Source of the DNA: an uncultured Lachnospiraceae bacterium
Lineage (GTDB): Bacteria > Bacillota > Clostridia > Lachnospirales > Lachnospiraceae
Assembly (NCBI GenBank): GCA_947169935.1
Contig: CAMVRS010000019.1
Span: 1-35,053 of the forward strand
Direction of reading: 5' to 3'
Length of the DNA stretch: 35,053 nucleotides
In this document: positions 4,982 to 18,454 of the stretch, piece after piece
How positions within the stretch are numbered: the first letter of the stretch is position 1
How the letters are laid out: the number at the start of each line of letters is the position of its first letter
Notes under the pieces: model-generated
The model's input: only the letters and a program-made list of their open reading frames with translations
Told to the model about the DNA's origin: nothing
The model's database searches: none
Position numbers and translations under genes: made by a program

Positions 4982-4987
4982 GCACTA

Positions 4988-5020
4988 AATATACCACACT
5001 GCCTGCAACAAGACCGCAAT
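4988..5020 (-). promoter_or_regulatory. Direct-repeat promoter D upstream of the 1333-aa gene
   Basis: Read on the minus strand, ATTGCG (5020-5015) and GTTGCA (5009-5004) are separated by 5 nt, an 11-bp period. They are followed by exactly 10 nt and the -10 box TATATT (4993-4988). The layout is the same as at three other sites at 15422, 15809 and 18422. The distal half-site is the least perfect of the set. The predicted transcription start falls at or next to the ATG at 4981. Confidence 0.65.
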
Positions 5021-5043
5021 ATAAGCATAAGACTTACAGCCTG

Positions 5044-8000
5044 TCAGTAATACAGTGAAATAAGCTCCTCAAGTTCTTTGATCCTTGCATCATAAGTTTC
5101 GATGTTTTCATCATAAAAATCTCTCGTTTTATCCGAAGAATCCCATTCGTTTTCTTTTTCGGTCAGTGCCGCACGCGCCTTATCACGCGCAGCATATATC
5201 TCATTTTTCATATTGCTGACCGTATCCTTGATCTGATCAATCTCTGCTTTGTCAGCTTCCAGCTGTTTCTTTGCTGCCTCCTGGTCTATCGATCTGTTAA
5301 GCTCATCCAGCGTAGAGTTTAACTGCGTTTTCTTGTCCTTCAGCGCATTCAGGCTGTTCCTGCACAGATTAAGCATGTTTGCTAATGCCCCAAAAGAGTT
5401 TCTATTTACGATTGCTTCAAGCGTTTTGACCTTGGTCTCCAAATTCGAGATCTGTGATTCGGTCAATGCCAGCTCATCCTGCGTCTGGGTGATCGCACTC
5501 TCTACCGCTGCTTTTGCAATCGGCGACATATTAACCCAGGCCTCCAGCACCCTTATCTCCTCTTCAAGAGCTGTTATTTTACTCTTTCCGCTTTGTTCTA
5601 TAGCTGCAATCGTCAGCTTTACTGCGCTGTCGGAATATGCATCGGCTGCGCTCTTTTCTGCAGCCACAAACGCGTCTTTAGTATACTTCACACATACCAG
5701 CTCCGCTTTGGCGCTCTCATCGGCTGCCTTCTTTGCCTTTATTGCTTCCAGTTCATCCCGCGCTGCTTTGAGCTTAACATCCTTAAAAGGATCGTATTTA
5801 AGCAGTAACTTATCTGTCTTCTTAATCTCGGATTCATAAGCTTTGACCAGATTTTCAAGCTGTTTTATCAGACTCTGATCCGTTGTTTTTGATGTGGCAT
5901 CATTTTCCAGAGCCTTTTTTAGTGCTTCTATCTTATTTAGTGCCTCGGCTTTTTCATTTTCAAGCGCAGCCTTACGGTTGAGCAGATCTTCCCTGTCCTT
6001 TAAAAGACCGGCTTTTTCCACCACCGACCTGACATTTTCCGCATTTACCTCCAGCCCATCTTTTTCAAGATAGGCCACGGCCCACTGTCCGGTCTCGCTG
6101 CCGTAGAGCATTGCGTCGGAAAGCTGGTCCGCAGCTGCTGCATATATCTCATCACCGTGTTGCAGCAGAGCCTCCTGTATCTCATCATTACTGACGGTGC
6201 TCTCATCTATGGCAACCTTATCCTTTTTCGCTCTCAGCATATTTATTTCATCCTGCAGTTTATTTATATCTTCCTGCGTTACACCCTTGCCCTCATTCTT
6301 CTTAACGAGCATGGATGCCATTTCCTTCTCTTTTTCAAGGATCGAAACATCTATACTGTCCAGCATTTCCTGCTTCTTTTTTTCTTTTATAAAATCCTTT
6401 GCGGCATTTTCAAGTATGGTATTTCTTGCCGCTATCTCCGCCGGATTAAGACCTGCAGCTATAGCCTCCTCAGAAGCCGCCTCGCGGTCCATCTGTTCTA
6501 CCATCTTTGCTATCTCTGCCGCATCATCAGTCAGACACTTTTTTACTTCGTCATCCGTGATCGTATCGGCCACGGTTTCCAGCTGTGCATCCAGTTCTTC
6601 AATGCGCTGCTTATAATAGGTCATGGTCGCACTGTCTGCTTCCTGACCGTTGGCATCCGTTGCCGCATTCAGCAGATCCTGCAGCCTTTCTTTCTCTGAC
6701 GTTATCTCTTCTGCCTTGCGTTTTTTCAGTATCTCCCTGGCTGCTATCTCCTGCATATCGGCTTCGGTAATAGTCTCATCGGCTATCAGTTTCTTACCGG
6801 AAGCATCAAAAGAAGCCCCGCCTATGTAACTGCCGTCTTCGGCAAACATCCTCAGGGTCAGTTTTCCGAGATCGTTCTTGATAAAGGACATATATGCAAA
6901 AGGATCGCCCGCATCAACCAGATCGTTGGAGAAAAGGAACAGATTCTGCTCTGCACTCAGGTTATAATATGCAACCTTTTTACCAAGTGCAAAATTCTTT
7001 TCCACAGCGGCGTCATCAAACTCAAAACGCAGTTTTATCATATCGGTATTGGTATCTTCCTCAACCGTATATTTGCCGATCACCTTTGACAGATCCTCGG
7101 TCCCGGGCAGGGTTGCCTCTTTGATATTGAGCGGTCCGACAGAAACGGTGGGATCTATAACGCATTCATCAATAAAATCATCCCCGTCATAAAGCCTTAT
7201 CGCTACTTTATCCACTTCCTGGACGGTAATGGTCAGATGCCGGATCGCCTCACCCGCGGGAGTGGTTTCTCCGATCTGCCTGTTGTCGCTCCAAAGTTCA
7301 AACTTTGTAATGTTATATTCAAAATCGTCAGGTACCTGGATATACAGCATAAACTCTTCGTTTTCAACGATGTATCTTATACTGTAGATAGCGCCTTTCT
7401 TGGTTATGACATCAAGACTGTCCAGATCATCCTCGATATTACCGGTACCTCCCACACCGGCCTGGGTGCTGATGGCTTCCTCAACAAAGTATGCGGAAGC
7501 ACCGCCGCAGGTAGTACGGTCATATTCAAACAAAGTGGAAGAATAAAGTGAAAGCGCGTCATTCAACGCTGTCCTGGCATTTTCATATTCCGTAAGCTCA
7601 GCCTCATATTCCTCCATGGTCATCTGCCCAAGGGCGTTAAGAGCCTCATCATAGATAAGCTGGTTCTGAAGCTTTTCCACATCCTTAACAGCCTGCAGAT
7701 AAGCCTTTCTTGTCTCTATATAGCTGTCGAAACCATCCGTAATGGCATTGGAAAGTTCGGTCCTGGCGTTATTATAATCCTTTAATGCGCTCTCATATTC
7801 CAGGGTTGCGGAATAGAGCACATAGGGATCGTCTTCCACATAACGGATACCGTCGATCTCTCCCTTCCACCAAACCTTGGGGAATTTGAAAAACAGTATC
7901 TTCTTCTTTCCTGTCCAGGGATCATCGATACGCTTCAAGAAGTTATCATAATCCTTCTTAAAAGCACGCTTGTTGATCTTGCTGCCGTCCAAAGCCTGCT

Positions 8001-8916
8001 GCACATAGCCGCTGATCATACCGATATTACCGCTGTATTGGGATTTCATCAAATTATAGTTGGTCATAAGAGCCAGCTTGGCAAGTTCTTCCGCCTGCTT
8101 TGCCTCATAGACATTCTCTTCCCTTATGTTGCTGGCACTCGAATCAGAAGAGCTCATTGCATAATACTTAAGCTGGTCTATGCAGTCCCTGGACATATTG
8201 GATGATATAAAGGCATTGTCAAAAGTATAGCCGCTTGTAACATCAAAGCCCAGCTCCCTGCCCAGCTTTTCCTTCGCACGCTGCAGGGTAGTCTGTTCCG
8301 ACGCCATGGAATTCTCCAGACCTTCAAGCCTGTCATTCTGCTGGTCAACCTGCGCCTGGGTTGCAGTGCCTTCGATCACACGCGCCTTATTCTTTTCTAT
8401 GGCAGCCTTAAGGCTCTTGATACGCTCTTTTAAGAAATCTATCTCATTAGTGCTGGTGATGATGTCTATATAAATGGTACTTATCTTTTCATAGGTTTTG
8501 AGCTTTTCATCCGTGATCTTATGGTTCAGCGTGTCGATATCATACTGCAGCTGTACGGGTTTGTACTGGAATTCAAAAGCCTCCGCCTCATTAGGTTTGG
8601 TAGGAAATGAAAAGTTAAGCAGAGGCGACCAGCGGAAAGTACTCATGTTCTTCTGCTTTTCCGCTATGGCACGGATAGCCGAATTCCTTGCCGCCTGCTT
8701 TGCCTCTATCTGGATCTCCAGCGCCTCTATCTTCTCACTGTTTGCTGCCGCTATGGACTTGGCTGAAGCAAGGCGGAGCTTGCCGGCAGCCTGTGTCTCC
8801 GAGCCGGGACAGATATCAGAAAAGCATGGAAAAAGAAGAGTGATCAGCAGCAGGGCTGTGACCGCTCTGGTCAATAGAGACTTTTTGAAGTTTTTCGACA
8901 TACCGTTCTTCTTCAT
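5044..8916 (-). CDS. TolC-like outer-membrane-factor-type protein with long coiled-coil extension (1290 aa)
   Basis: Residues 12-43 are a signal peptide. Residues about 48-470 look like the TolC/OEP fold: long helical stretches with the marker RVIEGTATQAQVDQQNDRL (about 179-197), then a helix ending LGRELGF, and a second similar helical half to about 470. Residues about 495-720 are predicted beta-rich. The rest, to 1290, is almost continuous coiled coil of Glu/Lys/Ala heptads. Classical TolC proteins are about 450-500 aa and make trimeric channels across an outer membrane, so both the presence in a likely Gram-positive and the extra 800 residues are odd. No lipobox, LPXTG or SLH motif is visible. 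It may form a tube or strut through the cell wall; that is inference. The start may be residue 6 (8901) instead. A dispersed repeat separates it from the MORN gene. Confidence 0.88.
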   Translation of the reverse strand: MKKNGMSKNFKKSLLTRAVTALLLITLLFPCFSDICPGSETQAAGKLRLASAKSIAAANSEKIEALEIQIEAKQAARNSAIRAIAEKQKNMSTFRWSPLLNFSFPTKPNEAEAFEFQYKPVQLQYDIDTLNHKITDEKLKTYEKISTIYIDIITSTNEIDFLKERIKSLKAAIEKNKARVIEGTATQAQVDQQNDRLEGLENSMASEQTTLQRAKEKLGRELGFDVTSGYTFDNAFISSNMSRDCIDQLKYYAMSSSDSSASNIREENVYEAKQAEELAKLALMTNYNLMKSQYSGNIGMISGYVQQALDGSKINKRAFKKDYDNFLKRIDDPWTGKKKILFFKFPKVWWKGEIDGIRYVEDDPYVLYSATLEYESALKDYNNARTELSNAITDGFDSYIETRKAYLQAVKDVEKLQNQLIYDEALNALGQMTMEEYEAELTEYENARTALNDALSLYSSTLFEYDRTTCGGASAYFVEEAISTQAGVGGTGNIEDDLDSLDVITKKGAIYSIRYIVENEEFMLYIQVPDDFEYNITKFELWSDNRQIGETTPAGEAIRHLTITVQEVDKVAIRLYDGDDFIDECVIDPTVSVGPLNIKEATLPGTEDLSKVIGKYTVEEDTNTDMIKLRFEFDDAAVEKNFALGKKVAYYNLSAEQNLFLFSNDLVDAGDPFAYMSFIKNDLGKLTLRMFAEDGSYIGGASFDASGKKLIADETITEADMQEIAAREILKKRKAEEITSEKERLQDLLNAATDANGQEADSATMTYYKQRIEELDAQLETVADTITDDEVKKCLTDDAAEIAKMVEQMDREAASEEAIAAGLNPAEIAARNTILENAAKDFIKEKKKQEMLDSIDVSILEKEKEMASMLVKKNEGKGVTQEDINKLQDEINMLRAKKDKVAIDESTVSNDEIQEALLQHGDEIYAAAADQLSDAMLYGSETGQWAVAYLEKDGLEVNAENVRSVVEKAGLLKDREDLLNRKAALENEKAEALNKIEALKKALENDATSKTTDQSLIKQLENLVKAYESEIKKTDKLLLKYDPFKDVKLKAARDELEAIKAKKAADESAKAELVCVKYTKDAFVAAEKSAADAYSDSAVKLTIAAIEQSGKSKITALEEEIRVLEAWVNMSPIAKAAVESAITQTQDELALTESQISNLETKVKTLEAIVNRNSFGALANMLNLCRNSLNALKDKKTQLNSTLDELNRSIDQEAAKKQLEADKAEIDQIKDTVSNMKNEIYAARDKARAALTEKENEWDSSDKTRDFYDENIETYDARIKELEELISLYY

Positions 8917-8932
8917 ACTAATTCACTTCTGT

Positions 8933-8996
8933 CAAGATTCTTCGTCGCTGCGCTCCTCAGAATGACACGATACTGCTATGCTCCTCAGAATGACAC
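8933..8996 (-). repeat. Dispersed intergenic repeat, copy 1 (full plus partial unit)
   Basis: On the minus strand a GTGTCATTCTGAGGAGCG unit (8968-8933) ends in ACGAAGAATC. It is preceded by a partial second unit at 8996-8981. The element fills the gap between the stop of the MORN gene and the start of the TolC-like gene. Related copies lie at 19394, 21429 and 23831. Similar sequences are common between genes of many unrelated bacteria. Confidence 0.8.
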
Positions 8997-10237
8997 TATT
9001 TCTCGATGTCCGCAAGGCTCTCTGCCTTGATAAAGTAAAATGAGAAGGTGTCAAGTCCCTGGTCGGTAACAAAGGTATAGAGCAGGCCGTCCTTGTGGTA
9101 GGTATGCAGATAGACCTCGTATTCCTCCTCATAGTCACTGACTTCGGTATATTCGGTAAAGATCGAATTCATCGTGATATCTGCCGGCCCGTTAATGACT
9201 ATGCCTTCTGTTGCCGCACTCATCTTATTTACGGTAAGTATCTCCGGAAGGGTTGCATAAGAAACACCCACATATATAGGCTCTCCAAGATATGCCGACA
9301 GTGCGCTGAATGTCTTTACCTGTCCTTCCGCGGTATTAAAGGTATTTTTCATTACATAGACCTGCTCTACGCTGGCCTCGGTATTAATGGATTCCTCATC
9401 AAGATATTCCACGGTCATGGCGCTTATATCCGGCATAAAACGGACTCTCTCTCCGTCAGCCTGATAGATGGTCCTCTTGCCGTTATATGCTGCTGCCAGC
9501 TCACTTGCCTTCTTTCCGATCAGATCACTGTACTTGATATCATCCAGGGTAAACTGACCATTGAATATGGCATTATGTCCCATATCATAAAGGATACCAT
9601 GGCCTTCCTTCATATCCAGCGCAAACTCGCCTTCGTACTCAAGGCTTCCGTTGGTCCTGAAAAGCTTGCCCGTGCCGCTGTGAAGGTTCTCATGGAAGGT
9701 TCCCTGATACCAGAGTACACCGTCCTGATAATACTGGTTGCCCTGTCCTTCATACATGCTGTTTGTAAAGCAGCCCTGATATACAACAAAGCCGGCGGGA
9801 TTCATCAGAGTTCCCTGTCCGTTGCAGGCTCCGCTGCTCACATCGCCTTCATAAGCAAGATAGCCGCTCTTTCCCTTGATACGTACCGTCCCCTTTGTAA
9901 ACTTGAGCAGTATATCATTGTAATCATAAGTCTTGATCCCGTCATTCTTGCTTCCGGGAAACAGTCCGCTCCATGAACTGTATACATACATAAAGGACAA
10001 TACGCCGACTATTATGACCACGGCAAAAGCCAGCTTTTTGCTGACCATCCAGCGGCCAATGGTATAATAATCATCCTTATCACGCGGCTTGACATTTAAG
10101 GTCTTGGTAAAGAATGTCTTTATAAGTTCCGTCAGACGCGTAAGGATAAAGCTGGGTTTGGTATACAGCTTTATCTTGGTAAGGATAGGCGTTATGCGCG
10201 CCTTCATCGATTGTAACAGTATTCTGAATATATTCAT
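8996..10237 (-). CDS. Membrane-anchored MORN-repeat protein (413 aa)
   Basis: Residues 1-68 are rich in Lys/Arg and probably cytoplasmic. A single membrane helix lies at about 69-88 (LAFAVVIIVGVLSFMYVYSS). By the positive-inside rule the rest is outside the membrane. Residues about 127-230 hold four to five MORN-type repeats, for example YEGDVSSGACNGQGTL, YQGTFHENLHSGTGKL and YEGEFALDMKEGHGIL. Residues 235-413 form an unassigned domain. MORN repeats are usually structural or membrane-binding modules; an extracytoplasmic array is less usual. An AAAGGAGAG site precedes the ATG. The gene sits 24 nt after the cyclase-like receptor gene and upstream of the TolC-like gene, so it is part of the same run. 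It may be a scaffold. Repeat identity is confident; role is unknown. Confidence 0.88.
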   Translation of the reverse strand: MNIFRILLQSMKARITPILTKIKLYTKPSFILTRLTELIKTFFTKTLNVKPRDKDDYYTIGRWMVSKKLAFAVVIIVGVLSFMYVYSSWSGLFPGSKNDGIKTYDYNDILLKFTKGTVRIKGKSGYLAYEGDVSSGACNGQGTLMNPAGFVVYQGCFTNSMYEGQGNQYYQDGVLWYQGTFHENLHSGTGKLFRTNGSLEYEGEFALDMKEGHGILYDMGHNAIFNGQFTLDDIKYSDLIGKKASELAAAYNGKRTIYQADGERVRFMPDISAMTVEYLDEESINTEASVEQVYVMKNTFNTAEGQVKTFSALSAYLGEPIYVGVSYATLPEILTVNKMSAATEGIVINGPADITMNSIFTEYTEVSDYEEEYEVYLHTYHKDGLLYTFVTDQGLDTFSFYFIKAESLADIEK

Positions 10238-10261
10238 TATGCTGTTATACGCTCTCCTTTA

Positions 10262-12721
10262 TCAAAGATGCAGATTTCCGACAAAATTCTCAGCAGTATT
10301 TTCATCATTCAGATAACGTTCACACTCAAACAGATACCATTTTGAGAGCTCGTCATCCGGCGCAAACTTGAGCACTTCCGAAAACCTGGAACGTGCGAAG
10401 TAGAAATCTTTCTCGTAGAAAAGACGCAAAGCTTCTTCAAAACGGGGTTTCTGTGCGCTGCGTATCTGTCTCACCGCAGGTGCCTCCGCATCGAAAAGCT
10501 CATAGAGCTTTATACGCTTGTCCGGATATTCGGGATCGGGTACTATAAAGCCGATATAACGCGTCTCACCTTTAAAATTCTCGTGCTCCAGAAGAGCCTC
10601 CGTGGCTACAACTCCAAGTTTCATTTCCCCGAAGAAATTGATATAGGTATCCAGCAGATCGTTCTCCGGTGATGAAAGATATATCGATGCCTGTCTTGCA
10701 TCCCCGGCAACACCGTATACATAAGGCGCGAAATGAAGAAGTATGCCTCCGCCCGTAATACCGCCTATCTGCTCTTCCTTTAATTTGAGCATCAGCTCAC
10801 AGCCGAAAGCCGTTGCGGACGGATTCTCCTCCAGGAAGAGAAACTTCATTTTGGACAGGTCGCTGTTATGCGAAATGAATATACCGTCAAATTCCTCACG
10901 GCATTCTTCGGTTATCTCCATCATGGTATTACGGCAATCCAGCTCCTGCCGGCCGCTGACGTCTGAAGAATAAACCTTTAAGCAGGCAATGGCACCGCTT
11001 CTCTCTGAGATGTCACCGCTGTTTACTTCGGTGATAGACTGACGGTCCAGTATGCGCTCTATGCTCTTGGGAGCAAAACGGAAATATGCTTCGTATGTAA
11101 GGAACTTAAGCCTGTTGTTATTGGCAACATTCTTGGTGATCTCCATAACGCTGTTCCACATATAGTTCATATCCCTGCCCACAACGGCAGGCTTATCGAT
11201 CATCTCATCATCACCCTTTGAAAGCTTGCCCAATGCATTCTGGAGTTTCAAAAGATCGGAAGACTGCCAGAGCAGGAATGCAATCCCTACAAGGCTTCCT
11301 ACGATAAAGAGGATCAATATAAAGCTTAAATTTCCGGTCAGCCCTGTTAAGAGTCCTGCAAAAAAGCTTTCGCCGGTACTTTCGTATATCATTGCCATTC
11401 CGGAATGCCCTGCGCCGGCAAGGTTGATCGCCATCAGAGTCATCTGGCGTCCTTCATCATCTATGTCAAGCTCTGCCATGGAATCACCGTTAGCCACGTT
11501 CTGCATCATATCCATGACAGACGATCCGTATATTTCGGAGATATAACTCTTGTTCATACCCGAAGCACTGATCACTACCTTGCCGGATATAGTATTTACC
11601 AGAAGTACATCCGTGATATATGTCATACTGTCGATACGTCTTCTGATCCTTGACGATAATACGGCATAATCATCTGTATTATACAGATTCTCGTCATTAA
11701 GATCCGTGAGCGTATATCCATCGACCACGCCAAAGGCATCCATATAGGTATAGATCTTATGCTCGTATCTGGCGTCCAGACGGTTTTCTCTCATAAGCAG
11801 AAGAACGGAACCCGCACATATAAGCAGCATAAACACCTCTAGAGAAGCCACCGCATAAACAACACGGCGCCTTTCCTTGAAAATAACCGCACAGAGTACA
11901 ATGACCATACTTCCTATAAACCCTATCAGGATAAAAAGTGTAGCATCGTAACCGGCAGCCCTCATATACTGTCCGCTTGATACTTTTCTGTTTTCGTAAA
12001 ACTCCTTTGCCTCGCGGTTTATGGCAAAATATCCCGGATCCGAATCATCATAACGCAGATGCAGATCACCGCCCCAGTATTCAGCCTGTACAAAATAATG
12101 GGGAAGTACGCATTCCCGGACCATGAATTCGGTAACTTCCGAATTCTCTTCCCACAATTTTTCCACATCGTCTTTATTATCCGAGTTGATCCGGATCATA
12201 TCGGATGCCGAAAGCTGATAAACATAAGCCTGCTGTCCGTTTTTGGATACCGCCGTTATGTTCATGACATCTTCCGTTGCCTCAAAACCGGTAAGAACCA
12301 GATCCTGAGGAAAACGGAATGCGCGGCTTACATGGGTTACCTGCAGGTTTTCATTAAAATTAGCCACACAGTATTGTTCTTTTAAATACCCGTTGTCATA
12401 GTACGCTTCCGAAAAAATAGCAGACAGATTCTCATCGTTAAGGGCATCGATCTTTTCGATACGGAAATACTTTAAATATTCATCTTCTTTTGTGGTAAAA
12501 AGAATATCCGCGGTATAATCATCACCTATACGCCAGATAAGACCGCCGCCCACACTGTGATTTTCCATAACATACCAGGCATCCCCTACACGGGCGCTGT
12601 CATTGTCCAGAGTATATTCTCCCTGCTTGCTTATCTTGGAATAGATCCATATCCCGATACATGACAGGATAAGCAGCCATATTGCTATGCATATTATTAC
12701 CGTTCTGATCCTTTTAGTCAT
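10262..12721 (-). CDS. Membrane receptor with degenerate class III cyclase-like domain and TPR-like tail (819 aa)
   Basis: Order of parts: membrane helix (about 8-28), extracytoplasmic domain (30-255), helices at about 261-281 and 287-310, a second extracytoplasmic Cache-like domain (312-460), helix (465-486), a short HAMP-like linker, a cyclase-like domain (about 545-745), and a TPR-like repeat (760-803, FEEALRLFYEKDFYFARSRF onward). The cyclase match rests on RFAPKSIERILDRQSITEV at its start and RIKLYELFDAE near its end, both typical of cyclases with a C-terminal TPR. Key residues look lost. The usual LFSDIR metal-binding Asp is replaced by Lys in IACLKVYSS, and the usual NLASR is ASIYLSS. 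I therefore expect a sensor or scaffold with no cyclase activity. AAAGGA precedes the ATG. It lies 19 nt after the kinase-like gene. Confidence 0.85.
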   Translation of the reverse strand: MTKRIRTVIICIAIWLLILSCIGIWIYSKISKQGEYTLDNDSARVGDAWYVMENHSVGGGLIWRIGDDYTADILFTTKEDEYLKYFRIEKIDALNDENLSAIFSEAYYDNGYLKEQYCVANFNENLQVTHVSRAFRFPQDLVLTGFEATEDVMNITAVSKNGQQAYVYQLSASDMIRINSDNKDDVEKLWEENSEVTEFMVRECVLPHYFVQAEYWGGDLHLRYDDSDPGYFAINREAKEFYENRKVSSGQYMRAAGYDATLFILIGFIGSMVIVLCAVIFKERRRVVYAVASLEVFMLLICAGSVLLLMRENRLDARYEHKIYTYMDAFGVVDGYTLTDLNDENLYNTDDYAVLSSRIRRRIDSMTYITDVLLVNTISGKVVISASGMNKSYISEIYGSSVMDMMQNVANGDSMAELDIDDEGRQMTLMAINLAGAGHSGMAMIYESTGESFFAGLLTGLTGNLSFILILFIVGSLVGIAFLLWQSSDLLKLQNALGKLSKGDDEMIDKPAVVGRDMNYMWNSVMEITKNVANNNRLKFLTYEAYFRFAPKSIERILDRQSITEVNSGDISERSGAIACLKVYSSDVSGRQELDCRNTMMEITEECREEFDGIFISHNSDLSKMKFLFLEENPSATAFGCELMLKLKEEQIGGITGGGILLHFAPYVYGVAGDARQASIYLSSPENDLLDTYINFFGEMKLGVVATEALLEHENFKGETRYIGFIVPDPEYPDKRIKLYELFDAEAPAVRQIRSAQKPRFEEALRLFYEKDFYFARSRFSEVLKFAPDDELSKWYLFECERYLNDENTAENFVGNLHL

Positions 12722-12740
12722 AATGATTCCTTTTTACCTG

Positions 12741-13586
12741 TTATTGTAACAATGACTCCAAACCTATTTTCTCAAAACTTCTGATGAACAGCCTCAGCCA
12801 CGGGACATCACCGAATATCAGATTGGTTATGAAAGTGACTATAACAAATATTGCAAGAATGAGACTCACCCACAGGAGTATACGGAACAGATTTCCCTTA
12901 TTGCGGTTGAACCAGGCTTTGAGCGCAGCCAGTATCCCGTGTTTTTTATTGGGCTCTGCCGCTATCTCAACATCCTTATAAAGCTCCTTGAAACTGCCGT
13001 AACTGGTCTTTTCCGTCTTTTTCTTTAAGAGCAGATAACTCTTTGCCTTACTGGCAGCCTTGGGCTCTAACAGTTCCAGAAGTATCTTTGCACATTCCAC
13101 TGCGCACTCGGATTCTCCGATGGTATCATCGAGCTGGGTAAGATCAAGCTTATAACTGATATGCACGGCACGATCCCTTGCAAGCTGTATCTCTCTCTGC
13201 TTAAGTACCAGGAAAAGAACGGGCCAGGGAAGATTGGAGGTCATGCAGGAAATGATGAGATTTATACAGACCTCCTCACATTCGACAAGCGTCATGGCGC
13301 CGCCCATATAAAAATCATCCAAAGGACGTTCCTGTACATAAGGATAGACCACGAAGTTGCGCCCTTCCTCAGAAAGGATAACGGGCTCTGCCTCCTTGGG
13401 TATATCCTCGCGGCTGTCATAGATATCGATAAAACGGTGCATGATCTTATGATCATCTACGGCCAGGACGGTGCACTTGCCTCCGGCAGTGTCCCTGGTA
13501 TCCTCGCAGATCATCACTTCATTTGCAGGCGATATTTTATATCTGTGTAACAGCCTGTATCTGGATGGCTGAAAACCGTCACTCAT
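12741..13586 (-). CDS. Kinase-like (pseudokinase?) protein with C-terminal membrane anchor (281 aa)
   Basis: I chose the ATG at 13586. It overlaps the upstream stop by 8 bp (ATGAGTGA) and has GAGGA at good spacing; a longer frame would start at 13613. The first 60 residues resemble the N-lobe of Ser/Thr kinases (RYRLLHRYKISPANEVMICE), and FVVYPYVQERPLDDFY resembles a kinase hinge. No glycine-rich loop, HRD or DFG motif is visible, so any kinase fold would be inactive. Around residue 165 SYKLDLTQLDD may mark the remnant of the C-lobe. A basic linker leads to one membrane helix near residues 234-256 (RILLWVSLILAIFVIVTFI) and a short outer tail. It is translationally coupled to the 601-aa gene, which suggests that the products interact. 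The family assignment is tentative. Confidence 0.82.
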   Translation of the reverse strand: MSDGFQPSRYRLLHRYKISPANEVMICEDTRDTAGGKCTVLAVDDHKIMHRFIDIYDSREDIPKEAEPVILSEEGRNFVVYPYVQERPLDDFYMGGAMTLVECEEVCINLIISCMTSNLPWPVLFLVLKQREIQLARDRAVHISYKLDLTQLDDTIGESECAVECAKILLELLEPKAASKAKSYLLLKKKTEKTSYGSFKELYKDVEIAAEPNKKHGILAALKAWFNRNKGNLFRILLWVSLILAIFVIVTFITNLIFGDVPWLRLFIRSFEKIGLESLLQ

Positions 13587-15384
13587 TCTTATCCTCGAAT
13601 CCGCTCTTCTCAACTATAGCGTATGCATAGGTGCAGATCACCGGCATATCGGTACAATAGATCCTTATCTCATATACACCGGGCTTAGCGGGTGCTGTAT
13701 AGATTCCGTCAGCGGTAATGCTGCCCGATCCTGCCTCCGTAAGCTCGTAAGTTACGCTGCACTTCTCCATATTGTTGTAACGCACGCCAAAGTAGTGGTT
13801 CTCCTTGGTACTCATGCGCACAGTAGGCGTATCGGGAGAAATGCTCCTGCCGGAATAATCCTCTGCAAGTTCCAGATCGTTTCCTGCGGGGAAACGAATG
13901 GCTACCCAGCGGTAAGTCAGCACAAGATAATCGACATTCTTAAGGAGTCTTGCCCCGACAACAAAGCTGCCCTTATCATTCAGAACACGTACGGCTGTTT
14001 CCGCGTCCACAACGGTACGCTGTTCGGGTGCAAAGATATCTGGGTTACCATAGATAGTACTCTTTGCATTTGCCCCCAGCGACTCATCTTCACGGATATA
14101 CTCGTATCCTACATCCACATATACATTACCGCGGCCAAGACCATGTACTATCTCGCCCGAATAATGAACGGAACCTTTACGCGCATTCTCACCAAGAGGG
14201 ATCTCCAGAACGCCCGTAGCCACTTCCGGGAAGTTTGAGCTGCGCTCAGCTGCCGAAGAATTATCCCTGATCTGTACCATTGCAGGGCCCGAGCTAGAAG
14301 AAAGATCGGCGTTCTTTACGAAGTATTCAAGATACTCACCGCGGCGCATCTCCTGGGCCGGTGAGGTGATATAATTCTTTGCCACTGTATCCTCTACATC
14401 TTCGATGATGTAGGCGCTGTCGGTACGTACCAGCTTAAGATCGGCCAGCGTGATGAAATCTCCCTGGGAGCCGATATTTCTCATCTCCAGGTTAAGTCTG
14501 CCTATCTCACGGTTAACCAGCTCTCTGGGCTGCATGTCGGAGAGAAGTACTTTAAGGGCAAAGTTTGCGGGAACTGGCACACTGCGGTCATTTTCATATC
14601 CTGCTGCCGTTCCGGTCTTCAGGATAATGTTGCTCTCCAGGGCCGGTGTATTCAAAACCATCATCCAATATTCATAATAAAGACTCTCACCCTCATTGAG
14701 TTCCACATCCACGATCTCGATGGCGATCTCACTGCTGCCGTCGGCACAGGAGAAAGCGGGAACCTGAAGTACTCCGCGGTAAGTAAGCCTTACATCGGCA
14801 TTATCAAGTTTCTTGACTACCACTCTGGCCTTAACCAGCTTTGAACGGCTTACGGTGGCAGGCATTGTGTACTCCACCATAAAATGATCGGAGGACATAA
14901 GCGTTCCACGGGTAAGGAACTCGGAATCCATCTCAAAATCCAGGGGCAGATCGCTCTTATCTACCAGGAAAAGTTCATAACCTTCCTTTACCCTGTTGTA
15001 CTGGAATTCTTTTTCCGGATCGGACTGATCGATCGCATAGACTTTGTGAACCGGCTCCTCTTTATAACGCAGGCAGAGCGTAGCCTCGTTTGATTTAAGG
15101 TTCTCAAAACCGGCAAGGGACGATAGCTTCTTGACATCTGAAGCTTCCACCACTATCTCCCTGCCCATACCGTCTATCGCCACGCCGCTCTCAACCAGCA
15201 GCGAAAGATCATCCAGCGAAAAAACTCCCAGGCCGCAGACAACGCCCTGACCGTACATCAGGCCGTTCAAAAAACGGCGCTTATTATTAAAGTAATCCTG
15301 TTCAGCCTGGTAATCCGCGCTGGATAAGCGTTTCTTTGGATAGTAACGGTTCCTTTCGAAAGGGTAGATCTGTGAGTTTGTCAT
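13579..15384 (-). CDS. Contractile-injection-system-associated-like protein with C-terminal Ig-like domain (601 aa)
   Basis: Residues about 5-78 carry a pattern I associate with proteins encoded in extracellular contractile injection (eCIS) and phage-like gene clusters: ERNRYYPKKRLSSADYQAEQ, then FNNKRRFLNGLMYGQGVVCG, then GVAIDGMGREIVV. The middle is beta-rich and unassigned. Residues about 525-595 look like a bacterial Ig-like domain (SGSITADGIYTAPAKPGVYE). No signal peptide or membrane helix is visible, so it is probably cytoplasmic unless exported by another route. GGAGAGAG precedes the ATG, and a direct-repeat promoter lies 38 nt upstream. No sheath, tube, baseplate or AAA ATPase genes are present in this window. 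A link to an injection system therefore rests on this one family resemblance and on what may lie beyond the left edge. Confidence 0.85.
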   Translation of the reverse strand: MTNSQIYPFERNRYYPKKRLSSADYQAEQDYFNNKRRFLNGLMYGQGVVCGLGVFSLDDLSLLVESGVAIDGMGREIVVEASDVKKLSSLAGFENLKSNEATLCLRYKEEPVHKVYAIDQSDPEKEFQYNRVKEGYELFLVDKSDLPLDFEMDSEFLTRGTLMSSDHFMVEYTMPATVSRSKLVKARVVVKKLDNADVRLTYRGVLQVPAFSCADGSSEIAIEIVDVELNEGESLYYEYWMMVLNTPALESNIILKTGTAAGYENDRSVPVPANFALKVLLSDMQPRELVNREIGRLNLEMRNIGSQGDFITLADLKLVRTDSAYIIEDVEDTVAKNYITSPAQEMRRGEYLEYFVKNADLSSSSGPAMVQIRDNSSAAERSSNFPEVATGVLEIPLGENARKGSVHYSGEIVHGLGRGNVYVDVGYEYIREDESLGANAKSTIYGNPDIFAPEQRTVVDAETAVRVLNDKGSFVVGARLLKNVDYLVLTYRWVAIRFPAGNDLELAEDYSGRSISPDTPTVRMSTKENHYFGVRYNNMEKCSVTYELTEAGSGSITADGIYTAPAKPGVYEIRIYCTDMPVICTYAYAIVEKSGFEDKNE

Positions 15385-15421
15385 TTTCTCTCTCCATTAT
15401 TTTGTTGTGATGGTTAATATA

Positions 15422-15454
15422 AATATATCAAGGCAGCCGCAACACATGCGCAAC
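15422..15454 (-). promoter_or_regulatory. Direct-repeat promoter C upstream of the 601-aa gene
   Basis: On the minus strand, GTTGCG (15454-15449) and GTTGCG (15443-15438) are separated by 5 nt. Ten nt follow, then the -10 box TATATT (15427-15422). The predicted transcription start is near 15415, giving a leader of about 30 nt before the ATG at 15384. There is no separate -35 match, which fits an activator-dependent promoter. Confidence 0.7.
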
Positions 15455-15483
15455 GGCAGCCATTTAGCACATTCCGGCCGGCG

Positions 15484-15756
15484 CTATATATCAAGATCAC
15501 GGGCAGCGCCTGCATTTCCCTCATCCGTATCGTATTTCTTATGTGAAGAACTTTCGGGCGTTACGTCCTGTCCGTCACCCGGATCCTCCTGTGTATCTTC
15601 GATCCCGGCATCCGCATCGGCTTCTGTTGCGAAAACATCAAAATAGCCCTGAAAATAATAGCCCAGGGCAACTATCCCAAAGGCAACATAAAGAAGCAGA
15701 GCTCCCAATATAAAGCTCTTACTGAATCTTCTGACTTTTTTACTCCCTTTTCCCAT
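15484..15756 (-). CDS. Small single-pass membrane protein (90 aa)
   Basis: A basic N-terminus (MGKGSKKVRRFSKS) is followed by a single membrane helix at about residues 15-38 and an acidic tail rich in Asp, Glu and Ser with no visible fold. By the positive-inside rule the tail lies outside. GTGGGGGAAA precedes the ATG. It is the first gene after direct-repeat promoter B and is separated from the 601-aa gene by 99 bp that contain promoter C. I do not recognise a family. Position and regulation suggest a small accessory subunit of the envelope system. Confidence 0.8.
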   Translation of the reverse strand: MGKGSKKVRRFSKSFILGALLLYVAFGIVALGYYFQGYFDVFATEADADAGIEDTQEDPGDGQDVTPESSSHKKYDTDEGNAGAARDLDI

Positions 15757-15808
15757 TTTCCCCCACTATCTGGTGATATGTCCTTACAAAAAGACAACAT
15801 CTTGTGAT

Positions 15809-15841
15809 ACGATACACTAAAAACCGCAACAAAAGCGCAAC
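15809..15841 (-). promoter_or_regulatory. Direct-repeat promoter B upstream of the 90-aa gene
   Basis: On the minus strand, GTTGCG (15841-15836) and GTTGCG (15830-15825) are separated by 5 nt. Ten nt follow, then the -10 box TATCGT (15814-15809). The predicted start is near 15802, about 45 nt before the ATG at 15756. It lies just after the stop of the response-regulator gene, with no terminator between, so readthrough from that operon is possible. Confidence 0.7.
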
Positions 15842-15866
15842 ATCATTATGTAAACCAACCACTTTT

Positions 15867-16661
15867 TCAGAAGGATGATTTGATCTCCATAAGCTCCGCT
15901 ATACGTTCTTCGGCCCATGAATACTGCCGCATATACTCTCCCATAAATTCCCGCACAGCCTCGGGATCACTGTCGATAAAACGGTAAAAATCACAGTCAA
16001 CCATATCCGTCTTTATCGCAAGGGAATTGTATTCACGTATCAGCACCTCACCAGAGCCCGCATCTGTCAGGCTTCTGCGAAGATCCGATATGAAAGTTCT
16101 GAGCTGGGAATTGCGGCTCACGAGATTACCGCCGTCTTCCCAAAGGATGCTTATTAGCTCTCCCATGGTAACAGACGCGCCGCGGCTGTCTATAAGATAT
16201 GCAAGTATCTCCTTGCATTTGGCCCTTTTAAAGAGAACGGGCCTGTTATGCGCGAACACCTCAAAATTACCGAAGCAGCGCACCTTAAGTCTGTTTGCTG
16301 TCCCTACGGGATGCCTGAGATGGACCAGTACTTTTTCAACGTCCGGAACATCAGCCGGCTTCACCAGATATCCGCTGGCGAATATGTTATGGGCATCCAG
16401 TGCATATTCCTTATGCCCGGTCACAAAGACTATATTTACTTCGGGCTGGATCTTCTTTAATGCTTCGGCCATCTCAAGACCGTTCATTTCCGGCATTTCG
16501 ATATCAAGAAACGCAACATCTATATGATGGGATCTGGCATAAGACAACGCTTCCAGCGGAGAAATGAGCCCGACATGATTTCCTTCGGGATCCAGCTCCT
16601 TCATGTTATGTATCATGGCGTTTACCGCCAGCTGTTTGTCGTCGATCGTTATGGTATTCAT
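15867..16661 (-). CDS. Response regulator with SARP-like DNA-binding output (264 aa)
   Basis: Residues 1-120 are a receiver domain: acidic pair in TIDDKQLAV, phospho-acceptor Asp near residue 54 (VAFLDIEMPEMNG), conserved Thr in FVTGH, and Lys in YLVKP. Residues about 128-220 form an OmpR-type winged helix (KCKEILAYLIDSRGASVTMG, then QLRTFISDLRRSL). The last 40 residues (DCDFYRFID, then YMRQYSWAEERI) look like the start of a BTAD-type helical extension, as in SARP/AfsR regulators. That family typically binds direct repeats with 11-bp period next to the -10 box. Exactly such repeats lie before this operon (18422-18454) and before three envelope genes, so I infer that they are its targets. It is the last gene of the two-component operon, 35 nt after a lipoprotein gene. 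GAGGT precedes the ATG. Confidence 0.93.
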   Translation of the reverse strand: MNTITIDDKQLAVNAMIHNMKELDPEGNHVGLISPLEALSYARSHHIDVAFLDIEMPEMNGLEMAEALKKIQPEVNIVFVTGHKEYALDAHNIFASGYLVKPADVPDVEKVLVHLRHPVGTANRLKVRCFGNFEVFAHNRPVLFKRAKCKEILAYLIDSRGASVTMGELISILWEDGGNLVSRNSQLRTFISDLRRSLTDAGSGEVLIREYNSLAIKTDMVDCDFYRFIDSDPEAVREFMGEYMRQYSWAEERIAELMEIKSSF

Positions 16662-16696
16662 ACAATGGTACCTCTTTTACAGGCTGAATGTTAAGA

Positions 16697-17134
16697 TCAG
16701 TACTCCCCTGTGTGAATAAAGCTTATTCCCGCGCCGGCGCCTTCAATATCGTCCTGCCAGCTCATCTTACCGTCAGTGATGCTTATGCTTCCGCTGCCAT
16801 TCTGATATATGATTTCTTCCGTTACTTCGCCTTCCTCATCATATATACCGCGGATGCATTCCATGTTTTCATATTTGATCACATTACCTGCGGCGCTGCC
16901 GGAAAAACTCCAGAATCTCGCCCGGTCAAAACCATCGCCTTTGCTTATCTCGCCATACCAGAGCCCGCTTTCATCGCTCCACATATCAATGACCGTATCC
17001 CCGCCTGCCTCATCGGACCATTCACCCGAAAAGTCCACCTCGGCCTTTGAGGCAGCGTTCCTGGCGCTGGGTATCCCACACGCACTGAACAGCATCATTA
17101 TTGTAATGGCTATGGTAAATGCTTTCTTCTTCAT
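16697..17134 (-). CDS. Lipoprotein related to the operon's first lipoprotein (145 aa)
   Basis: This is a secreted lipoprotein: Lys-rich start, hydrophobic core and lipobox LFSAC with the modified Cys near residue 19. The mature part is beta-rich. It aligns with the lipoprotein encoded at 17855-18370 at the C-terminus: GSGSISITDGKMSWQDD against GTGRIYYLDGNVFWMDE, each followed by an AGxG..F segment. Near the mature start both have a GEW / GTY strand. The start codon overlaps the kinase stop by 4 bp (ATGA), so it is translationally coupled to the kinase. I infer that the two lipoproteins sense a signal or modulate the kinase, which has almost no sensor domain of its own. No family name is known to me. 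Confidence 0.88.
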   Translation of the reverse strand: MKKKAFTIAITIMMLFSACGIPSARNAASKAEVDFSGEWSDEAGGDTVIDMWSDESGLWYGEISKGDGFDRARFWSFSGSAAGNVIKYENMECIRGIYDEEGEVTEEIIYQNGSGSISITDGKMSWQDDIEGAGAGISFIHTGEY

Positions 17135-17853
17135 ATCACATGTCTGGTCTCATCCAGAGGTATCTCTATCCTGACTATGGTCCCCTGTCCCGTATTGATG
17201 ATATTAAGCTCACCGTTGCACATGAGCTTAAGCCTCTCCCGCGTATTCTTTATACCTGTGCTCCTGTGCTCGGCCTGCTGTTTGGTCTCGTTTCCAAACC
17301 CTACTCCGTTATCTTCCACACTGATAACGACCCTGTCTTTTTCCAGCCTGCTGCTGATATTTATCACGCCGTTATCCTTACGGCTTATACCATGGCGTAT
17401 GGCATTCTCCACCATGGGCTCAACCACCATCAGCGGAAGGCAGAAATCGGTGAATTCCGTATCGTAATTAACTACGAAATTTACAGCAGGGTCTGCCTTT
17501 TCAAGCGCAACATATTCTCTGATACATTCCAGCTCGGTATCAAAGGTAACAGGATCATCGGAACTCATGGCGTCCAGATTAGCCCTCAGATAAGAAGAAA
17601 AATGCTGTACCGCCCTGGCAGCCTGCCTGGGATCCTCAATGCAAAGCTGTTTGATCGCCAGCAGGGAATTAAAGATAAAATGTGGCCTTATCTGATTCTG
17701 CGAAATACGCAGCTTCAGTCCGGTCATTTCCTTATCCTGCTCTTTAAGCTTCTCATCCCGTTTCCTTATCTCTTTTATATCCCATATAACAAGGATGATA
17801 AGGACCAACAGCAAAACAGCTGTCGGGATCAAAGCAATATACCATTTGATCAT
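17131..17853 (-). CDS. LytS-like sensor histidine kinase (240 aa)
   Basis: The ATG at 17853 follows the upstream stop by one base; a GTG at 17868 is the alternative start. One membrane helix lies at about residues 4-25, with virtually no extracytoplasmic domain. A coiled linker leads to a His_kinase-type H-box (NQIRPHFIFNSLLAIKQL) and a HATPase domain with the N-box (VVEPMVENAIRHGI) and a DNGVGFG motif. This is the LytS/YesM branch of kinases that phosphorylate a partner response regulator. Its partner is very probably the regulator at 15867. It is unusually short for the branch, which often carries a 5TM or Cache sensor. With lipoprotein genes on both sides, sensing may be delegated to them. 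Confidence 0.93.
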   Translation of the reverse strand: MIKWYIALIPTAVLLLVLIILVIWDIKEIRKRDEKLKEQDKEMTGLKLRISQNQIRPHFIFNSLLAIKQLCIEDPRQAARAVQHFSSYLRANLDAMSSDDPVTFDTELECIREYVALEKADPAVNFVVNYDTEFTDFCLPLMVVEPMVENAIRHGISRKDNGVINISSRLEKDRVVISVEDNGVGFGNETKQQAEHRSTGIKNTRERLKLMCNGELNIINTGQGTIVRIEIPLDETRHVI

Positions 17854-17854
17854 A

Positions 17855-18370
17855 TTATTCGCCAGCACTCTCCGATGCAGCCGCTTCCTCTTCTACACGT
17901 TCAAATATAAAACCCGATCCGGCGTTATCCTTTTCATCCATCCAGAAAACATTGCCGTCAAGGTAATAGATCCTGCCGGTCCCGTCACTGTAAACATCCG
18001 TAGTAGTAACGCCGTTTGACATATTCTCCGCAGACGGGAGCAGATATGATGTATGACTGCCCGCGGTATATTCCAGCCCCAGTCCGTCTTCCGCCGGTTT
18101 TGCCGTGAATTCGTAGCTTTGGATATTTGTTATATCCTTATCCGGAACGGAGATCGTGCAAAGGAAACCATTACCCGCCAGCTCGATGGAAAGCACCGCC
18201 AGCTCGTTCACTGAATCGATATATGTGCCTTCCCATTGAAAATCCGTGGGAGGCGTAAACGGAACCATGTCCTCCTTGGCAATGTCTGCATCATTTTTCT
18301 GGCACGCGGATAACAGCGATACCATGATCATCGCTGTCAACAATAATACTGGTCTTTTTAAAATCTTCAT
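17855..18370 (-). CDS. Lipoprotein, first gene of the two-component operon (171 aa)
   Basis: The start at 18370 gives MKILKRPVLLLTAMIMVSLL followed by SAC, a proper lipoprotein signal with the modified Cys near residue 23. A longer frame to 18445 is rejected because its extra residues would spoil the signal peptide and would cover promoter A. GGGAG lies about 15 nt upstream. The mature part is beta-rich and related to the lipoprotein at 16697 in its C-terminal half. It ends in a Glu/Ala/Ser tail. The direct-repeat promoter A lies 50 bp upstream, so this operon is probably under control of its own response regulator. Confidence 0.87.
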   Translation of the reverse strand: MKILKRPVLLLTAMIMVSLLSACQKNDADIAKEDMVPFTPPTDFQWEGTYIDSVNELAVLSIELAGNGFLCTISVPDKDITNIQSYEFTAKPAEDGLGLEYTAGSHTSYLLPSAENMSNGVTTTDVYSDGTGRIYYLDGNVFWMDEKDNAGSGFIFERVEEEAAASESAGE

Positions 18371-18421
18371 CACTGTCTGACATCTCCCGGATATCTGAAT
18401 AAGGCACAATACACCATTAGA

Positions 18422-18454
18422 AGTATAACAGCAAAAGTGCAACAAAAATGCAAC
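18422..18454 (-). promoter_or_regulatory. Direct-repeat promoter A of the two-component operon
   Basis: On the minus strand, GTTGCA (18454-18449) and GTTGCA (18443-18438) are separated by 5 nt. Ten nt follow, then the -10 box TATACT (18427-18422). The predicted start is near 18415, giving a leader of about 45 nt. The same geometry as the sites at 15809, 15422 and 4988 points to one regulator and to autoregulation. Confidence 0.72.

What the first reader, a model, noticed from the sequence alone, without database searches (positions are those of the whole stretch)
4988..18454. Four promoters with an identical 33-bp direct-repeat layout: a regulon of the local SARP-like response regulator
At 18454-18422, 15841-15809, 15454-15422 and 5020-4988 the minus strand shows GTTGCR, 5 nt, GTTGCR, 10 nt, then a -10 hexamer (TATACT, TATCGT, TATATT, TATATT). 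Half-sites are exactly 11 bp apart and the gap to the -10 is exactly 10 bp each time. The only deviation is the distal half-site of the last one (ATTGCG). All four lie directly before genes of the left-hand system and none was found elsewhere between genes in the window. SARP/AfsR-type regulators are known to bind 11-bp-period direct repeats next to the -10. The regulator at 15867 has that type of output domain, so it probably activates its own operon and the envelope genes.
Basis: partly seen in the sequence, partly recalled or inferred. Interest (0 to 1): 0.87.

Follow-up and report, generated by a model that had tools for sequence, protein, structure and literature searches.

The report
Injection-system switch with four matching promoters
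A gut-type bacterium carries a phage-tail-like injection machine whose genes start from four promoters with the same repeated DNA tag, and comparison with relatives suggests that the neighbouring sensor-regulator pair recognises that tag and switches the machine on.

Summary
The four 33-bp sites are exactly as described; 0.001 would be expected per window, and the 4.21-Mb genome holds these four and no other. A consensus drawn from 14 orthologous sites finds those 14 and nothing else in 35 same-genus genomes. All 14 lie in the four genomes with this regulator's orthologue; eight genomes with a homologous system but without the orthologue have none.

The "left-hand system" is the leading part of a contractile injection system (CIS) cluster.

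The regulator has a receiver domain and a SARP-like winged helix but no recognisable BTAD domain. Relatives of it have their own 11-bp repeats within 300 bp after the regulator gene: 27 of 80 loci at period 11, 2-6 at other periods. In five same-genus genomes a related regulator goes with 16-21 matches of a looser form of the pattern genome-wide.

Best reading: the phosphorylated regulator binds the repeats as a side-by-side dimer and activates its own operon and the CIS operons. No binding or transcription was measured.

The parts
18422..18454 (-). Site P1: half-sites 18454-18449 and 18443-18438, -10 18427-18422; before the lipoprotein-kinase-lipoprotein-regulator operon
   Evidence: found with the same spacing in 4 of 4 genomes with the regulator (distal half-site GTTTC in the three relatives)
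15809..15841 (-). Site P2: before the 90-aa membrane protein gene
   Evidence: present in this genome and G031; in G019 and G025 the next frame starts 4 nt after, or overlaps, the regulator's stop and there is no site
15422..15454 (-). Site P3: before the CIS13-family gene and its operon
   Evidence: in 4 of 4 genomes (proximal half-site GTTACG in G025)
4988..5020 (-). Site P4: before gene A (1333 aa) and the CIS structural genes; ATG 6 nt after the -10
   Evidence: in 4 of 4 genomes (distal half-site GTTACG in G019)
15867..16661 (-). Response regulator: receiver domain (D7, D8, D53, T81, K101) and SARP-like winged helix; proposed binder of P1-P4
17131..17868 (-). LytS-type sensor histidine kinase (His_kinase PF06580 + HATPase_c)
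16697..17134 (-). Small lipoprotein-like gene between kinase and regulator, weakly similar to the other lipoprotein-like gene
   Evidence: lipoprotein label by eye
17855..18370 (-). Lipoprotein-like gene, first of the P1 operon (start codon inferred)
   Evidence: lipoprotein label by eye
15484..15756 (-). 90-aa protein with one probable membrane helix (by eye)
13579..15384 (-). CIS13-family protein (residues 9-141)
   Evidence: NF053767 E 7.9e-21, 74.7 bits, below the curated cut-off 370; 56-59% homologues lead 8 further loci
12741..13613 (-). 290-aa probable membrane protein of the CIS cluster, only a below-cut-off Pfam match
10262..12721 (-). 819-aa probable membrane protein of the CIS cluster, no Pfam family
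8996..10237 (-). MORN-repeat protein of the CIS cluster
5044..8916 (-). 1290-aa probably secreted protein, weak (below cut-off) outer-membrane-efflux-like match
980..4981 (-). Gene A, 1333-aa probably secreted protein, first gene after P4
1..967 (-). Start of gene A2, cut by the contig end; its counterparts in G031 and G025 are followed by CIS structural genes

Best explanation
The four sites are operators of the response regulator at 15867-16661. Shown here: fixed 11-bp direct repeats, 10 nt before an extended -10 with no -35, found only where this regulator's orthologue is found and only in its CIS cluster. Inferred: a signal reaches the LytS-type kinase (perhaps through the two lipoprotein-like neighbours), which phosphorylates the regulator; two regulator molecules sit side by side on the repeats over the missing -35 and recruit RNA polymerase as AfsR does. 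This raises the sensor-regulator operon itself (P1), a small membrane protein (P2), the CIS13-led operon (P3), and gene A with the structural genes behind it (P4), so the injection machine is made all at once.
For: Exact sites and chance tests. 14 sites in 4 genomes with the same spacing, and none in the other 31 same-genus genomes with the consensus of those 14, 8 of which have a homologous CIS cluster. The regulator's DNA-binding profile finds AfsR (E 0.0043) and EmbR (0.0096) ahead of OmpR/PhoB-type regulators (best 0.067) among solved structures. SARP sites are 11-bp direct repeats beside the -10 (passages of PMC10936776). Motif-blind test in 80 other regulator loci: exact 7-mer repeats before a TANNNT within 300 bp after the regulator in 11 at period 11 and 0 at periods 8-10 and 12-16; with one mismatch 27 against 2-6 (77 of the 80 hold the full 300 bp, same counts). 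Three regulator types in the genus go with three half-site types.
Against: No binding, transcription or phosphorylation data. The AfsR match is weak. BTAD, a defining part of SARPs, is not detected in any of 46 family members scanned. 53 of 80 related loci show no repeat just after the regulator. Without the -10 condition, TTGC pairs are not in excess at period 11 in those loci (50, against 102 at 12 and 82 at 9). P2 is absent in two of three relatives. Five of the eight CIS-only genomes hold a more distant family member on another contig, so the family alone does not predict CIS control. In three of the five genomes with the large sister regulon a second family member is present and some sites lie on its contig, so which regulator binds there is open.
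Confidence: 0.87

Rival explanations
1. The repeats are operators of a different regulator, encoded elsewhere, and this response regulator has other targets.
For: Direct binding was not tested. Direct repeats with an 11-bp period suit any OmpR/PhoB-type winged helix (recalled), and the genome may encode other regulators of that kind.
Against: Sites and regulator orthologue occur together in 4 of 35 genomes and were not found apart. Related regulators often sit beside their own versions of the repeat.
Confidence: 0.07
2. The sites are operators of this regulator but repress: the regulator blocks the -35 region until a signal releases it.
For: The repeats cover the place where sigma region 4 would bind.
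Against: There is no recognisable -35 to block (best 2-3 of 6 matches), as expected for activator-dependent promoters; AfsR activates from this position.
Confidence: 0.05
3. The pattern is a by-product of local duplication or composition, without function.
For: All four sites lie on one strand in 14 kb.
Against: Shuffles give 0, other periods and gaps give 0, and the sites are kept in relatives while most of the surrounding intergenic DNA has diverged.
Confidence: 0.01

Closest known systems
AfsR and other Streptomyces SARP activators
   Same: Winged helix most like AfsR and EmbR; 11-bp direct repeats over a poor or missing -35, next to the -10. In the alignment the window's recognition helix keeps AfsR residues R87, T88, S91, R94 and has R for K95.
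   Different: Receiver domain at the N-terminus and no detectable BTAD; the base-contacting R92 of AfsR is D here; half-site GTTGCR; the target is an injection machine, not antibiotic genes.
PhoB/OmpR-type response regulators and the pho box
   Same: Receiver plus winged helix; 11-bp direct repeats about 10 bp before the -10 (geometry recalled).
   Different: Profile is nearer to AfsR and EmbR, though all these E-values are weak; paired with a LytS-type kinase.
Extracellular CIS loci with BTAD or GerE regulators (Geller 2021, PMC8213781; passages seen)
   Same: BTAD and GerE domains were listed as shell domains of eCIS loci and proposed to regulate them.
   Different: In the passages seen the regulator is only a neighbour; here operators, the borders of the regulon and the link to the regulator are proposed.
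Thylakoid-anchored CIS of Anabaena (PMC8894136; passages seen)
   Same: Cis13 there is a tail-fibre-like protein whose C-terminus anchors the machine in a membrane; the first gene of the P3 operon has a CIS13-family N-terminus.
   Different: A 601-aa protein matching the family only at residues 9-141, followed by probable membrane and secreted proteins that I did not trace in that paper.

Membership tests
SARP (Streptomyces antibiotic regulatory protein) family | AfsR/EmbR-like winged helix | tested here: met
   best solved relatives are AfsR and EmbR, with weak E-values 0.0043 and 0.0096
SARP (Streptomyces antibiotic regulatory protein) family | BTAD domain after the winged helix | tested here: not met
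   no BTAD match up to E 0.1 in the window protein or in any of 46 members scanned; the protein ends about 55 residues after the Trans_reg_C match
SARP (Streptomyces antibiotic regulatory protein) family | Operators are 11-bp (or 22-bp) direct repeats close to the -10 | tested here: met
   definition from PMC10936776: 8 bp from the -10, equal to 10 here if the repeat is counted as 6 instead of 8 contacted bases
SARP (Streptomyces antibiotic regulatory protein) family | Transcriptional activation through sigma region 4 | not testable with these tools
   -
Response regulators | Receiver domain with phosphorylation site residues | tested here: met
   Response_reg E 3.6e-17; D7, D8, D53, T81, K101 present
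Contractile injection systems | Sheath, tube, baseplate, cap and AAA ATPase genes in the cluster | tested here: met
   Relatives' loci: Phage_sheath_1, Pvc16_N, Phage_T4_gp19, DUF4280, AAA, GPW_gp25, Baseplate_J, AAA. Own genome: sheath match, CIS_tube and Phage_base_V on contig C100, next to the window only by synteny
Contractile injection systems | Functional contraction and delivery | not testable with these tools
   -

The most novel reading that the evidence does not exclude
BTAD-less, SARP-like response regulators form a large family, mostly in Clostridia, that serves as the on-switch of injection machines: a CIS here, a type IV-like system with some 15-20 co-regulated, mostly large proteins (candidate effectors) in sister lineages. 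Each regulator has its own half-site word in a near-invariant frame (11-bp repeat, fixed distance to an extended -10), so the operators can be used to list the cargo of each machine from genome sequence alone.
Probability: 0.45. Interest if true: 0.85.

Novelty: new variant of a known kind. Interest (0 to 1): 0.66.

Why it matters
To my knowledge (recalled, and none of the searches listed below showed otherwise) how contractile injection systems are switched on in Gram-positive gut bacteria is open; BTAD domains had been listed beside such loci (PMC8213781). Here the operator, its frame and the likely members of the regulon are defined tightly enough to test with one binding assay. The same frame with other half-site words appears beside related regulators, which gives a way to predict regulons, and in sister lineages it marks many promoters that may reveal the cargo of a type IV-like secretion system.

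Tried and rejected
Looked for further members of the regulon in the own genome with up to 2 mismatches: 9 extra hits, all with 2 mismatches, against 11 in the control, so not counted. One of them (contig C199:4067-4099, before an open frame of 914 aa that runs to the contig end) resembles P2; left as unexplained. Two other such hits were fetched (L042, L043) and only scanned for the site and for window proteins; the remaining six were not fetched.

Looked for the same sites in the eight distant CIS loci: none (L063 is short and L058-L065 are stretches, but one search covers the whole genomes). With the looser pattern, two of these eight genomes have matches (G026 three, G002 one) that do not fit the consensus. 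A REC-LytTR regulator precedes the CIS13 gene in L061 (Pfam); the gene in the same place in L060 looks alike by eye only.

A first consensus search had the spacer one base short and found 1 unrelated match in 35 genomes; corrected.

The 1500-1800-bp control stretch gave 2 at period 11 and 0-2 at other periods, but only 67 of 80 loci hold that stretch in full and it is probably mostly coding, so the other periods in the same stretch are the fairer control. In 18 shorter loci (L012-L029) plus L035 and L036, period-11 repeats were also listed in 10 of 20, without a control.

Considered LytTR operators, because the kinase is LytS-type; rejected because the regulator has no LytTR match. Considered an ordinary -35/-10 promoter; rejected. 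Searched the own genome for the relatives' coupling protein: 5 partial matches on 4 contigs, best E 1.9e-31; not followed.

Literature (open-licence papers only): SARP + response regulator + contractile injection system (3), SARP + Firmicutes + response regulator + direct repeats (0), 'SAPR family response regulator' (0), contractile injection system + Lachnospiraceae (1), AfsR + SARP + cryo-EM + direct repeats (1), at least 3 of CIS + two-component + transcription + Cis13 (28, of which 20 listed), type IV secretion system + Lachnospiraceae + effector + coupling protein (0), SARP + response regulator + Clostridioides difficile (0), contractile injection + rumen (3). Passages were seen of PMC10936776, PMC8894136 and PMC8213781; the others only as listing and start of abstract. 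None of what I saw describes such operators for a CIS; this is no proof of absence.
Full report
Observation. The four sites read exactly as described: GTTGCA-N5-GTTGCA, GTTGCG-N5-GTTGCG, GTTGCG-N5-GTTGCG and ATTGCG-N5-GTTGCA, each followed by 10 nt and TATACT, TATCGT, TATATT, TATATT. They are the only matches of RTTGCR-N5-RTTGCR-N10-TANNNT in the window, with 0 matches in 100 shuffles and an expectation of 0.001 by composition. Changing the period (7-16) or the gap (6-15) gives none. In the whole genome (4,210,437 bases, 306 contigs) the four are the only matches, with none in the reversed control. Allowing two mismatches gives 13 against 11 in the control, so the rest is background. A stricter form found nothing outside this window in 295 genomes of the order.

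Conservation. The regulator has orthologues of about 80% identity in 3 of 34 other same-genus genomes, G031, G019 and G025. The block from the NUDIX gene to gene A is collinear in them; the 90-aa gene gave a tblastn match only in G031. Aligned promoters show the repeats and the spacing in all four genomes at P1, P3 and P4, with single changes in some half-sites (GTTTC in the distal P1 half-site of the three relatives, GTTAC in one half-site each of G025 P3 and G019 P4). P2 is kept only in G031. In G019 the next frame starts 4 nt after the regulator's stop and in G025 it overlaps it, and no site is found there. That makes 14 sites. Their shared frame is RTTDC-N5-TGTTRCR-N7-KKN-TAWNNT, with an extended -10 (T 13 of 14, G 12 of 14). 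The four window sites have no recognisable -35. A search of 35 genomes with this frame, about 108 Mb by the sizes listed, returned the 14 sites (by construction) and nothing else, control 0.

What the system is. The P3 operon opens with a protein whose N-terminus matches the CIS13 family of contractile injection systems (E 7.9e-21, though below the curated cut-off). Homologues of it (56-59% identity) occur in 8 further same-genus genomes. Seven of these loci carry matches to the same six genes in the same order; the eighth, L063, reaches the contig end right after the CIS13 gene. Of those seven, all hold a Pvc16-like start, six the start of a tail sheath and six a tail-tube motif within the fetched stretch; Pfam confirms sheath and Pvc16_N in L061, tube and DUF4280 in L059 and an AAA ATPase in L062. 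In G031 and G025 the structural genes follow gene A and A2 directly. Of 10 further proteins scanned from the own genome's contig C100 and from G031, 7 gave CIS-type or AAA families: CIS_tube twice, a YQBQ/prophage-tail match, Phage_base_V, GPW_gp25, Baseplate_J and AAA. In the own genome the sheath and some of these genes lie on contig C100, whose first frame looks by eye like the end of A2, so the two contigs are probably neighbours. The window contig ends at base 1 inside A2. Where the machine sits is not known. In the Anabaena CIS, Cis13 anchors the machine in a membrane (passages of PMC8894136); the probable membrane and secreted proteins beside it here make a membrane-tied machine plausible, which is inference.

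The regulator. It has a receiver domain with the phosphorylation residues and a winged helix just below the Pfam cut-off (24.5 against 26.2 bits). A profile of 25 C-terminal parts, the window's included, finds AfsR (0.0043) and EmbR (0.0096) before OmpR/PhoB-type regulators (best 0.067) in the PDB. No BTAD match appears in 46 members. It is thus SARP-like, not a full SARP. In that alignment the AfsR residues R87, T88, S91 and R94 are kept, K95 is R, and R92, which contacts a base in AfsR, is D. The kinase is of the LytS type, usually partnered with LytTR regulators (recalled).

Family test. 80 related regulator loci, the best of 563 confirmed, came from named records: mostly Clostridia and other Firmicutes, with a few labelled Coriobacteriaceae, Bacteroides, Treponema or other spirochaetes and one deltaproteobacterium. 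Without assuming a motif, I looked for 7-mer direct repeats before a TANNNT within 300 bp after the end of the regulator match. Exact repeats: 11 of 80 loci at period 11 and 0 at periods 8-10 and 12-16. One mismatch: 27 against 2-6. 77 of the 80 hold the full 300 bp, with the same counts. Half-sites differ, among them TGTTGC, TGTGGC, TGTGAC, TGTCAC, TGTCAT. So the frame looks like a property of the family and the word changes with the regulator. 53 of 80 loci show nothing there. A test tied to the TTGC word found 8 sites in 6 of 80 loci; at that period and distance to the -10 it gave 8, the next best combination 4, while TTGC pairs alone are not in excess at period 11.

Sister regulons. A genus scan with the looser TTGCR-N6-TTGCR-N10-TANNNT gave 129 matches against 5 in the control; 94 of the 129 lie in G009, G032, G021, G017 and G005 (17, 21, 19, 21, 16; control 0 in each). 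These five carry a 43-46% related regulator, with sites before the sensor operon (four of the five loci) and before the next operon (all five). Three of the five have a second, 35-38% related regulator, and some sites lie on its contig, so the assignment to one regulator is open. G020 has seven matches (five of the consensus type) but no regulator match at E 1e-20 in its 72%-complete genome, an exception. A few matches in the five genomes do not fit the consensus. Near this regulator lie, in G005 (L038), a type IV coupling-protein gene (PF02534, 3.6e-51), DUF1292 and an Rce1-like gene, and in G032 (L039) a STAS gene. Of 10 downstream proteins scanned, out of 31, 8 have no Pfam match; the other two are a SpoIIE-type phosphatase and a glycosyl hydrolase family 3 protein. 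Downstream frames have a median of 729 aa against 382 for other frames in the same loci; 19 of 23 have a basic C-terminal tail against 16 of 38, and 4 of 23 against 0 of 38 end in a tail like NNKAVVPKRK. These counts include G020's locus. G024 and G012, with a third regulator type, have a third word, TTTTGCTTCAC repeated, at 4 + 4 places (one in each genome was known before), control 0, and none in the four other genomes searched. There the distance to the -10 is not the same as in the window.

Mechanism. AfsR binds two 11-bp repeats overlapping the -35 as a side-by-side dimer and gives sigma region 4 another docking point (passages of PMC10936776). The frame here is the same within the uncertainty of where a half-site ends: 8 contacted bases plus 8 equals 6 plus 10. 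Predicted regulon: P1 the sensor operon (positive feedback), P2 a small membrane protein, P3 the CIS13-led operon, P4 gene A, A2 and the structural genes. In all four genomes the ATG of gene A lies 6-7 nt after the -10 and a Lys/Arg-rich start is kept, which suggests a leaderless message; this is inference.

Limits. Nothing was measured in a cell or a tube. No structure model was obtained. Genomes are drafts, and the contig break prevents seeing the whole P4 unit in the own genome.

Noticed in passing
G009, G032, G021, G017, G005 (e.g. L185, L187-L199, L037-L041): 16-21 matches per genome, most of them CTTGCAC direct repeats before a -10, in genomes with a related regulator; beside it in G005 a VirD4/TraG-like coupling-protein gene. 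They precede mostly large proteins, 8 of 10 scanned without Pfam match, some with a basic C-terminal tail of the type NNKAxVPKxK: candidate substrates of a type IV-like secretion system.
   Followed up: partly
G024 and G012 (L035, L036, L200-L207): Third operator word (TTTTGCTTCAC repeated) at 4 + 4 places with 0 in the control, with a third regulator type.
   Followed up: partly
window 4979-4993: ATG of gene A is 6 nt after the -10 (6-7 nt in all four genomes): possible leaderless message.
   Followed up: partly
L061 3784-4482, L060 15743-16501: In homologous CIS loci a REC-LytTR regulator (Pfam for L061, by eye for L060) stands directly before the CIS13 gene: the machine seems to have changed regulators within the genus.
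   Followed up: partly
L030 (G000:C199) 4067-4099 and 4157-6900: A site like P2 with two mismatches before an open frame of 914 aa that runs to the contig end; chance is likely but not certain.
   Followed up: partly
window 16697-17134 and 17855-18370: The two lipoprotein-like genes around the kinase may be diverged copies of each other (weak cross-matches in L031 and L033); possible sensor partners of the short kinase.
   Followed up: no
window 21464-23803: Clostripain-family peptidase (PF03415, 3.7e-43) with a glycine-rich N-terminus.
   Followed up: no
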